Source of the DNA: Baekduia alba | GTDB lineage: Bacteria; Actinomycetota; Thermoleophilia; Solirubrobacterales; Solirubrobacteraceae | Reading direction: 5' to 3' | Assembly: GCF_028416635.1 (NCBI RefSeq) | Contig: NZ_CP114013.1 | Coordinates: forward strand, 2,666,001-2,730,000 | Length of the DNA stretch: 64,000 nucleotides | Part shown: positions 46,587 to 57,485 of the stretch, one piece after another | Position numbering within the stretch: the stretch's first letter is position 1 | Layout of the letters: each line of letters starts with the position of its first letter | The notes under the pieces: model-generated | Seen by the model: only the letters and a program-made list of their open reading frames with translations | What the model was told of the DNA's origin: nothing | Database searches by the model: none | Position numbers and translations under genes: made by a program

Positions 46587-46979
46587 ATGGCTGAGGCCAC
46601 GGTGCTCGTGGTGGACGACGACGCAGGCTTCCGCGCCTACGTGCGCGCGGCGCTGGAGGGCGAGCGCTTCCGGGTGGTCGAGGGCGAGAGCGGCCCCGAC
46701 GCCGTCACGGTCGCGCTCCGCGAGCGTCCCGACGCCATCCTGCTGGACTGGCGGATGCCGGGCCAGAGCGGGATCACGGCCTGCCGCAACCTGCGCGCCG
46801 AGCCGACCCTGGCCGGCGTGCGCATCGCCATGATCACCGGCCTGGACGACGAGCGCGACCGCACGCTGGCCCGCCACGCCGGCGCCGACGCCTTCCTGGT
46901 CAAGGACCCCGACCCGGACGCGCTCGCGCGCCAGGTCCGCCGGCTGCTGGACGCCGGCCCCGCGCCCGTCACACCGTAA
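46587..46979 (+). CDS. Stand-alone response regulator receiver
   Basis: 130-residue CheY-like receiver with no output domain: acidic pair VLVVDDDAGFRAYV, phospho-Asp in AILLDWRMPGQSG, Thr in AMITGLDD, and the Lys in AFLVKDPDP. It would take phosphate from an unlinked histidine kinase. A GAF-type kinase with no partner lies at 51-53 kb; a link is only a guess. Two hairpins follow the gene. Confidence 0.88.
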   Translation: MAEATVLVVDDDAGFRAYVRAALEGERFRVVEGESGPDAVTVALRERPDAILLDWRMPGQSGITACRNLRAEPTLAGVRIAMITGLDDERDRTLARHAGADAFLVKDPDPDALARQVRRLLDAGPAPVTP

Positions 46980-50975: not shown

Positions 50976-51320
50976 ATGCCGCCCGCACCCTTCGAGCTCG
51001 ACTTCGTCCGGATCATCAACGCCGCTCGTCTGGAGCTGGAGTCCGCCGGCAACCCCGCCTACGCGGTCTCCGTCATCGAGCCCAACGGGCAGGCCCATCT
51101 GGCCCCGATGGTCTTCTCCACCGTCGGCCCCGCGACCGACCACGCGACCCGCCTGGGCCGCGCCGCCTTCGACACCGGTGAGCAGATCGTCATCGTCTCC
51201 CGCTCGGCCGCCGGCCGCCGCGCGATGTTCACCGTCGTCGAGCCGCGCACCCTGCGCAAGCTCCACCAGCGCCTCGAAGTGATCGAAGAGACCTTCGCGG
51301 AGCTGGATACCACGATCTAA
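50976..51320 (+). CDS. Hypothetical protein
   Basis: 114 residues, not recognised. It begins with a helix (LDFVRIINAARLELESAG), then strands (AYAVSVIEPNGQAHLAPMVF), a helix-rich middle, the hydrophobic strand EQIVIVSRSA, and a C-terminal helix (RKLHQRLEVIEETFAELD). No signal peptide, membrane helix or cysteine. The stop codon overlaps that of the convergent histidine kinase gene by 3 nt. Leaderless pattern and normal codon use support a real gene. Confidence 0.6.
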   Translation: MPPAPFELDFVRIINAARLELESAGNPAYAVSVIEPNGQAHLAPMVFSTVGPATDHATRLGRAAFDTGEQIVIVSRSAAGRRAMFTVVEPRTLRKLHQRLEVIEETFAELDTTI

Positions 51321-52945
51321 CGGGTCGCGGCCTCGGGCGCGACGTCGCGCTCGTCGGCCACCGCGCGGTACCAGAGGAGCATCATCGGCTCCTCGTCGGT
51401 GAACTGCCAGCCCGGCTCGCCGAAGAGCAGCGCCATCTCGTCGCGGATCGTCGCGTAGAAGCCACGGCGGTCCGACCGCCAGCCTTCGAGGGTCGTCGCC
51501 CCGACGTCCTCGGGCTCCAGCCAGTCGTCGTCGATGTCCAGGAACGGGACCGACGCCACGCTCACGACCTCCACGGTCGCGCGGCGGCGGCCGAGGTGGT
51601 CCATGACCGGCAGGCGCTGGCCGACGCGCGGCGCGCCGCCCTCCAGCTCCCACTCGCGGGCGAGCGTCACCGACAACGTCTTGCGCCCGGCGAGCACGGC
51701 CTGGATGTTGCGCTCGCCGCGGCCGCCGTCGTCGGGGTGGCCGAACTCCAGGAACGGCTCGTGCGCGCTGCGCCACGGCGCGAGCGGGATCGTCGCGGTG
51801 AGCGTCGTTCCGCGGCCGGGCGGAGACTCGACCAGCAGCTCGCCGCCGAGCGCGGCCACGCGGTCGCTCAACCCGGCCAGCCCGCTGCCGCCGGTGGCGT
51901 CGGCGCCGCCGCGGCCGTCGTCGGCGAGCGTGACGACCGCCTCGCCCAGCCTGGTCGACACGTCCACCCGGACGACGTCGGCCTGCGCGTACTTCACCGC
52001 GTTGGTCAGGCCCTCGGAGGCGAGGTAGAACGCGGTCAGCTCGACGGGCGCGGGCAGGCGCCGCTCCGGCAGCCCGTCGATGTGCAGGGGGATGGGGGAG
52101 CGGCCGGCCAGCGCCTCGAGCGCCGAGCCGAGGCCCTTCTCGGTCAGGCCGGCGGGATGCAGGCCGCGGGCCAGCTCGCGCAGCTCGTCGGTCGCGAGCC
52201 GGGCCTCCTCGTGCGCGCGCTCCAGCAGCTCCAGCGCGACCGGCTCGGCGTCGTCGCCCAGCTTGCGGCGCGCGATGCCGATCAGGTGGCCGAGCGCGAC
52301 GATGCGCTGCTGCGCGCCGTCGTGCAGGTCGCGGCCGATGCGCTGGCGCTCGGAGTCGGCGGCGTCCAGGACGCGGGCGCGCGCGGCGGCGACCTCGGCG
52401 TCGCGGGTGCGTAGCGCGGCCTGATGGCGGCGGCGCTCGATCTCGGCGCCCGCGCGCGCCGCGAAGATCTTCAGGACCGCGAGCTCGTCCTCGTCGGGGT
52501 CGATGGCCGTGGACGACATCAACGCCACGTAGCCGACGTGCTCGTCGCCGGCGCCGGGGAGCGCGACGCCGAGGTAGGAGTCCAGCCCGAAGTCGCGGAC
52601 GTAGCGGTCGTCGGGGAAGCGCGCGCACGTGCCTTCGGGGAGCACCAGCAGGCCCTCGCGGCGCACGACCGCGCACGGCATCGAGTCGTCGAGGTCGAAC
52701 TCGTAGCCCTCGCGCATCTCGACGCCGTTCTGCCACGACACCAGCACGCGGACGCGCCCGACCGCGGGCGCGGGCAGGTGCTCGGCGATGAACGCCAGCT
52801 CAGCGCCGAACGCGGCGGCGAGATGGCGGACCATCGCGCGCAGGAACGCGTCGCCGACGACCCCGGCCGTTCCCGTCGCGAGGCGCCTCAGGAGGTCGCG
52901 CTCGCGCGCGCTGGGCGGATCTTCTGGCGCTTCGGCGGTCGACAC
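51317..52945 (-). CDS. GAF histidine kinase fused to a C-terminal ASCH domain
   Basis: 542 residues, no membrane segment. About 25-172 is a GAF sensor; 196-263 is a HisKA_3 dimerisation domain with phospho-acceptor His208 (GRDLHDGAQQ); 305-388 is the ATPase (TNAVKYAQ N-box, ADDGRGG, GSGLAGLSDRV). About 398-530 does not belong to a kinase: PFLEFGHPDD, NIQAVLAGRKTLSVTLAREW, VGQRLPVMDHLGR, VEVVSVASVPFLDIDDDWL and WRSDRRGFYATI follow the ASCH domain, a PUA-like fold thought to bind RNA or modified nucleobases. No response regulator is adjacent. The GTG start has TACCAT 10 nt upstream. Confidence 0.85.
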   Translation of the reverse strand: MSTAEAPEDPPSARERDLLRRLATGTAGVVGDAFLRAMVRHLAAAFGAELAFIAEHLPAPAVGRVRVLVSWQNGVEMREGYEFDLDDSMPCAVVRREGLLVLPEGTCARFPDDRYVRDFGLDSYLGVALPGAGDEHVGYVALMSSTAIDPDEDELAVLKIFAARAGAEIERRRHQAALRTRDAEVAAARARVLDAADSERQRIGRDLHDGAQQRIVALGHLIGIARRKLGDDAEPVALELLERAHEEARLATDELRELARGLHPAGLTEKGLGSALEALAGRSPIPLHIDGLPERRLPAPVELTAFYLASEGLTNAVKYAQADVVRVDVSTRLGEAVVTLADDGRGGADATGGSGLAGLSDRVAALGGELLVESPPGRGTTLTATIPLAPWRSAHEPFLEFGHPDDGGRGERNIQAVLAGRKTLSVTLAREWELEGGAPRVGQRLPVMDHLGRRRATVEVVSVASVPFLDIDDDWLEPEDVGATTLEGWRSDRRGFYATIRDEMALLFGEPGWQFTDEEPMMLLWYRAVADERDVAPEAATR

Positions 52946-56004: not shown

Positions 56005-56110
56005 GTTCTCTCCTCCTGCTGACCTACTGGCGCAGCCGGATGCCGCGCCCGACTGGACGCGAACCTAACCGCGATGGAGGATGCCCTGCAAGGCGCGCCC
56101 TTGACGCTGC

Positions 56111-56116
56111 TAGCCT
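56111..56116 (+). promoter_or_regulatory. Candidate -10 of the DEAD-box helicase gene
   Basis: TAGCCT in the 236-bp gap; if used, the helicase mRNA has a leader of about 118 nt, long for this window. The other part of the gap, 56005-56110, shows nothing clear. Confidence 0.35.
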
Positions 56117-56209
56117 CTGTCGGGCGTGGGGCACCGACGTCGCACGCGAGGCAGCTCGCTTGGGTCCCGCCAGGGTGCGGTTCGGGTCAGCAGTCTCCCC
56201 GAATCGTCA

Positions 56210-56227
56210 GCGGCCTTCGAAGGCCGC
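56210..56227 (+). promoter_or_regulatory. RNA hairpin just before the helicase ribosome site
   Basis: GCGGCCTTCGAAGGCCGC is an 18-bp perfect palindrome (7-bp stem, TCGA loop) ending 3 nt before the GGAG Shine-Dalgarno at 56231. It could control translation of the helicase. Confidence 0.5.
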
Positions 56228-56240
56228 ACTGGAGTCCCAT

Positions 56241-57485
<1,245 letters not shown>

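What the first reader, a model, noticed from the sequence alone, without database searches (positions are those of the whole stretch)
51317..52945. Histidine kinase fused to an ASCH domain
One continuous frame joins a GAF-HisKA_3-HATPase kinase (His208) to a C-terminal ASCH domain of about 130 residues. ASCH is a PUA-related fold linked to RNA or modified nucleobases. I know of no described kinase with this output. It may sense an RNA or nucleoside, or couple signalling to RNA. No response regulator is adjacent.
Basis: partly seen in the sequence, partly recalled or inferred. Interest (0 to 1): 0.75.

Follow-up and report, generated by a model that had tools for sequence, protein, structure and literature searches.

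The report
Histidine kinase with C-terminal ASCH domain
A soil actinobacterium and some relatives carry a signalling kinase permanently joined to an ASCH domain, a fold known for binding RNA or modified nucleosides; the fusion is real, arose once and is kept by selection, but what the ASCH part senses or does is not yet known.

Summary
Window 51317-52945 (-) is one uninterrupted 542-aa frame: GAF, DesK-type HisKA_3 (His208) and HATPase_c, then, after a linker of about 10 residues, an ASCH domain (398-530). ASCH is supported by sequence (profile to PDB 1t62 8.9e-37, 3s9x 2.1e-32) and fold (pLDDT 90.8; Z 12.3 to 3s9x, 10.9 to the ac4C amidohydrolase YqfB). It is not an artefact: 11 loci in 10 genomes (three genera, two families of Solirubrobacterales) share the architecture. 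Both halves are monophyletic, consistent with one origin, and ASCH is under purifying selection. The closest unfused kinase ends at the join. I found no published histidine kinase-ASCH fusion; Pfam just misses the domain in this copy.

Interpretation is only partly supported. The fused ASCH is acidic (net -6 to -10 in 8 tails checked) and does not conserve the YqfB K-T-E triad (intact in 2/11 fused, 34/36 stand-alone relatives), while gaining clade-specific invariant residues. I favour a non-catalytic ligand-sensing module acting on the kinase (about 0.45) over an RNA-processing output. The kinase is orphan: 57/78 related kinases have a NarL-type regulator within 1 kb; of 11 fusion loci only one does, and there it has its own kinase.

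The parts
51317..52945 (-). 542-aa GAF-HisKA_3-HATPase_c-ASCH histidine kinase gene, GTG start, includes stop
   Evidence: the GTG start is also present in G006 and G001
52436..52858 (-). GAF domain, residues about 30-170
   Evidence: GAF_2 weak here (0.0049); GAF over gathering in orthologues G006, G205-type and G204; folded in the full-length model, pLDDT about 90
52145..52357 (-). HisKA_3/DHp, residues 197-267; His208 at 52322-52324, DxxxQ motif (D209, Q213)
   Evidence: best PDB sequence match DesK
51782..52135 (-). HATPase_c, residues 271-388, N, G1 and G2 motifs intact
51755..51781 (-). Conserved linker APWRSAHEP, residues 389-397; W391 in 10 of 11, R392 and P397 in 11 of 11 fusions
   Evidence: closest kinase without ASCH (L009) stops at ...ATIPL just before this
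51356..51754 (-). ASCH domain, residues about 398-530; K422, S425, E479 align with YqfB K21, T24, E74
50976..51320 (+). Convergent 114-aa gene of unknown family whose stop overlaps the kinase stop; homologue beside HK-ASCH in G006, G003, G001, G002; possible partner

Best explanation
A soluble, orphan, DesK/NarL-class histidine kinase that gained a C-terminal ASCH domain by one gene fusion in Solirubrobacterales. Shown by computation: the continuous frame, the domains, intact kinase motifs, trees consistent with a single origin of the fusion, purifying selection, no conserved response regulator nearby, and non-conserved YqfB-type catalytic residues together with new clade-specific invariants. 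Inferred: the ASCH pocket binds a small, probably nucleoside-like cytoplasmic ligand without obligate catalysis, and through the short conserved PWR linker changes the position of the ATP-binding domain, tuning kinase versus phosphatase activity alongside the N-terminal GAF domain; phosphate then goes to a regulator encoded elsewhere.
For: Continuous frame; orthologues over Pfam thresholds for kinase and ASCH; ASCH fold Z 12.3/11.8/10.9. Fusion in 10 of 232 genomes of the order and no further ones in samples of 396 (phylum) and 399 (class) genomes. One clade on both trees (support 94/92 kinase core, 100/100 ASCH). ASCH dN/dS 0.05-0.54, similar to or lower than HATPase in most pairs. YqfB K/T/E triad, S or T accepted in the middle: complete in 2/11 fused versus 34/36 stand-alone, while R430, W432, G437, P446 and M521 are invariant in all 11 fusions and G437, P446, M521 occur in none of the 36 stand-alones. 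No NarL-type regulator within 1 kb in 10 of 11 loci versus present in 57/78 related kinases. Net charge -6 to -10 in the 8 tails checked, against a basic nucleic-acid cleft. Published YqfB homologues act on free acylcytidines and showed no nucleic-acid binding (PMC9599836).
Against: No ligand, phosphorylation or partner data. The window's own copy keeps K422, S425 and E479, so enzymatic activity in this copy is not excluded. The E479 column lies in a variable loop and its alignment is loose. Clade-specific invariants could equally be a kinase-ASCH interface. Relative domain placement in the full-length model is uncertain (pTM 0.57, monomer only). No coordinates were available, so invariants were not mapped onto the pocket.
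Confidence: 0.45

Rival explanations
1. ASCH is the effector: kinase state (ATP binding or His phosphorylation) switches an ASCH nucleoside amidohydrolase or RNA-binding/cleaving activity, so no response regulator is needed.
For: No adjacent regulator. ASCH proteins include an ac4C amidohydrolase and an RNA-cleaving protein (PMC9599836, PMC5615036). K422/S425/E479 present in the window copy. In G204 the second DHp helix is deleted in frame while ASCH is kept. In G001 a DEAD-box RNA helicase is the divergent neighbour.
Against: Triad complete in 2 of 11 fusions only, and the Arg aligned with YqfB R26 is absent in all 11; acidic domain; fold Z to the RNA-cleaving ZmASCH only 7.6-7.7 versus 12.3 to 3s9x; the helicase was not seen next to the gene in G005, G226, G204 or G205.
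Confidence: 0.2
2. ASCH is a structural or docking element: a scaffold, dimer clamp or docking site that gives an orphan kinase specificity for a distant regulator, with no small ligand.
For: Conserved short linker and clade-specific invariant residues; catalytic residues not conserved; a kinase C-terminal tail is known to dock its regulator (WalK, abstract of PMC9087282).
Against: The ASCH core, including the G of GxK and most barrel residues, is retained and folds confidently as a full domain, more than simple docking would need.
Confidence: 0.25
3. A fusion with little function of its own (passenger), or a gene-calling or assembly artefact.
For: The G001 second copy is split by a frameshift between the halves; G204 has a damaged DHp; narrow distribution.
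Against: 11 loci over three genera, dN/dS well below 1 and an unchanged linker in three comparisons, one clade on both trees.
Confidence: 0.05

Closest known systems
DesK / NarX-type HisKA_3 sensor kinases, soluble GAF-containing (DevS/DosT-like) branch
   Same: GAF, HisKA_3 with HDxxxQ, HATPase_c; best PDB sequence matches DesK and, for the ATPase domain, DevS; closest unfused homologue is L009 from Ca. Solirubrobacter pratensis
   Different: Extra C-terminal ASCH domain, no adjacent NarL-type regulator, no membrane part
Stand-alone ASCH proteins of the 1t62/3s9x type (old Pfam DUF984)
   Same: Same fold over the whole domain, Z 12.3 and 11.8; stand-alone relatives in the same phylum; nearest in the tree is L119 of the same family, weakly placed
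   Different: Fused to a kinase; EGEGD motif lost, K to R in 4 of 11, clade-specific conserved LAREWELEGG and EPM stretches
E. coli YqfB, N4-acetylcytidine amidohydrolase (9kyf, 9kyh)
   Same: ASCH barrel, Z 10.9, 2.4 A over 101 residues
   Different: 19% identity; K21/T24/R26/E74 not conserved across the fused clade
ZmASCH ribonuclease (5guq)
   Same: ASCH/PUA-like barrel, Z 7.6
   Different: 13% identity; its positively charged RNA cleft (PMC5615036) contrasts with the acidic fused domain

Membership tests
HisKA_3 (DesK/NarL-class) histidine kinase | HisKA_3 with phospho-acceptor His in an HDxxxQ context | tested here: met
   PF07730 2.5e-12; H208, D209, Q213
HisKA_3 (DesK/NarL-class) histidine kinase | HATPase_c with N, G1 and G2 motifs | tested here: met
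   PF02518 6.4e-9; N315, D342/G344/G346, G353/G355
HisKA_3 (DesK/NarL-class) histidine kinase | Adjacent NarL-type response regulator (typical, not defining) | tested here: not met
   None near the window gene; control 57 of 78 homologues have one within 1 kb
HisKA_3 (DesK/NarL-class) histidine kinase | Autophosphorylation and phosphotransfer | not testable with these tools
   Needs protein biochemistry
ASCH domain (PF04266) | Sequence profile over gathering score | tested here: inconclusive
   20.2 versus 21.2 bits here; orthologues G052 and G226 at 34.4 and 33.4, over the cut-off; profile to 1t62 8.9e-37
ASCH domain (PF04266) | PUA-like barrel with ASCH topology | tested here: met
   Model pLDDT 90.8; Z 12.3 to 3s9x, 10.9 to YqfB
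ASCH domain (PF04266) | GxKxxxxR octapeptide described for ASCH proteins (PMC5615036); not shared by all stand-alone relatives | tested here: not met
   G420 and K422 present but the last position is T427; K is R in 4 of 11 fusions; the 36 stand-alone relatives also lack the R, so it does not exclude ASCH membership of this branch
YqfB-type ac4C amidohydrolase | Catalytic K21, T24, E74 (and R26) conserved | tested here: not met
   Across the fused clade K 7/11, S or T 6/11, E 7/11, all three in 2/11, R 0/11; the window copy has K, S, E but not R
ZmASCH-type RNA-binding nuclease | Basic RNA cleft with Tyr47, Lys53, Ser128 | tested here: inconclusive
   Net charge -9 for the window domain argues against; residue equivalents were not mapped on coordinates

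The most novel reading that the evidence does not exclude
The first histidine kinase regulated by a modified-nucleoside-binding ASCH domain: a domain of RNA and nucleoside turnover recruited once, with its catalytic triad relaxed, as a C-terminal sensor that reports nucleoside or RNA breakdown to a two-component network.
Probability: 0.2. Interest if true: 0.8.

Novelty: new variant of a known kind. Interest (0 to 1): 0.55.

Why it matters
Most ASCH proteins have no known function (stated in PMC9599836), and what most kinases of this class sense is unknown. A single-origin fusion under selection ties the two questions to one soluble protein, where a ligand can be screened by its effect on kinase activity. 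It also shows a folded C-terminal module other than a receiver domain placed after the ATPase of a histidine kinase, which standard Pfam annotation just misses in this copy.

Tried and rejected
Artefact or missed stop: rejected by orthologues and selection. Plasmid or phage origin: no plasmid record covers 80% of the protein and the best hits are kinase parts; no viral relatives. Independent HK-ASCH fusions elsewhere: five long-frame ASCH hits of the phylum sample were fetched; of the four displayed none was a kinase (G434 a sarcosine-oxidase-like fusion, G316 ASCH followed by an acetyltransferase-like tail, G273 and G562 only long open frames); the G277 frame was not displayed. Other phyla could not be sampled. 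A first regular-expression scan for response regulators was too insensitive and was replaced by phmmer. In G226 an adjacent NarL-type regulator exists but is followed by its own HisKA_3 kinase and is absent beside the gene in sister G052, so it is not taken as the partner. Iyer et al. on the ASCH superfamily was not held.

Full report
WHAT IS THERE. The 542-aa frame at 51317-52945 (-) is real and unbroken. It reads GAF (about 30-170), a long signalling helix running into the HisKA_3 segment with His208, a HATPase_c domain to residue 388, the linker APWRSAHEP, and an ASCH domain at about 398-530. In this copy ASCH scores 20.2 bits against a Pfam cut-off of 21.2, and a whole-genome scan with the Pfam model misses it. 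The orthologues G052 and G226 are over the cut-off for HisKA_3, HATPase_c and ASCH in one protein. A profile of fused and stand-alone tails finds 1t62 at 8.9e-37 and 3s9x at 2.1e-32. The predicted tail (pLDDT 90.8) matches 3s9x with Z 12.3, 1t62 with 11.8 and the ac4C amidohydrolase YqfB with 10.9; the ZmASCH structures come near 7.7 and EVE and YTH domains lower.

HOW WIDELY IT OCCURS. In 232 genomes of the order, 10 genomes carry 11 loci with tails above 190 bits; the next hit is at 85 bits and stand-alone. Samples of 396 genomes across the phylum and 399 across the class add none. Trees of the kinase core and of the ASCH domain each put the fusions in one clade. The nearest unfused kinase, L009, is GAF-HisKA_3-HATPase and ends at ...ATIPL, where the fused proteins continue, mostly with (A/S)PWR. 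Between close relatives the ASCH part has dN/dS 0.05-0.54, similar to or lower than the HATPase in most pairs; the 13 codons at the join show no amino-acid change in G000/G006, G000/G003, G006/G003 and G052/G226 despite synonymous change, though G000/G001 and G204/G205 do differ there.

WHAT THE ASCH PART LOOKS LIKE FUNCTIONALLY. Stand-alone relatives keep the residues aligned with YqfB K21 (36/36), T24 (34/36) and E74 (36/36). In the fused clade these are K 7/11 (R in 4), S or T 6/11, E 7/11; only G000 and G002 keep all three. The E column lies in a variable loop, so that column is the least certain. At the same time the fused clade has its own invariants (R430, W432, G437, P446, R501, W513, M521), several found in no stand-alone relative. 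Net charge is -6 to -10 in the eight tails counted. Published YqfB-type proteins act on free N4-acylcytidines and showed no nucleic-acid binding (PMC9599836), whereas ZmASCH uses a basic cleft for RNA (PMC5615036). My reading, which is inference, is a remodelled, not obligately catalytic, binding domain.

THE KINASE AND ITS PARTNERS. The kinase motifs are intact in the window copy and closest in the PDB to DesK by sequence, with DesK among the best structural matches. With phmmer, 57 of 78 related kinases have a two-domain NarL-type regulator within 1 kb; of 11 fusion loci only G226 does, where that regulator is followed by its own HisKA_3 kinase. So this is an orphan kinase lineage by gene order. 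The conserved neighbour in the genus is a 114-aa protein of unknown family, adjacent in five genomes and nearly genus-restricted, with no significant match in Pfam or PDB.

MECHANISM. Most likely the ASCH domain binds a small cytoplasmic ligand and acts through the short linker on the ATP-binding domain. Rivals are an ASCH output (enzyme or RNA binder switched by the kinase) and a docking module. Sequence cannot separate input from output; the tests are given under next steps.

NOVELTY. Three paper searches for ASCH and kinases gave no described HK-ASCH protein; the nearest is a remark that EVE fusions of another type sit near kinases and regulators (PMC7641849). The open-access library is incomplete and the founding ASCH paper was not held, and only Actinomycetota genomes were sampled, so absence elsewhere is not shown. 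I rate it a new variant of a known kind: a new domain architecture of a histidine kinase.

Noticed in passing
50976-51320: Convergent 114-aa gene, stop overlapping the kinase stop, no significant Pfam or PDB match; homologues adjacent to HK-ASCH in five genomes, codirectional and with a second copy next to it in G002.
   Followed up: partly
about 46600-46979: Single-domain CheY-like receiver, syntenic with the HK-ASCH gene in G006, G003 and G001; conceivable phosphate acceptor.
   Followed up: no
L106:6427-7877: Second HK-ASCH copy in G001 split by a frameshift between HATPase and ASCH; sequencing error or decay.
   Followed up: no
L156:7162-8607: G204 copy lacks the second DHp helix in frame (HisKA_3 matches only positions 1-32) yet keeps ASCH; probably kinase-defective.
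   Followed up: partly
L159 (G434): ASCH domain at the N-terminus of a sarcosine-oxidase-alpha-like protein in the same class: another unusual ASCH fusion.
   Followed up: no
L102:4150-5448: In G001 a DEAD-box RNA helicase is the divergent neighbour of HK-ASCH; in the window it lies at about 56040-57482 with other genes between.
   Followed up: partly
L157:7386-7862 and L156:6656-7195: An Lrp/AsnC-type regulator converges on HK-ASCH in both g12 genomes, the ends overlapping.
   Followed up: no
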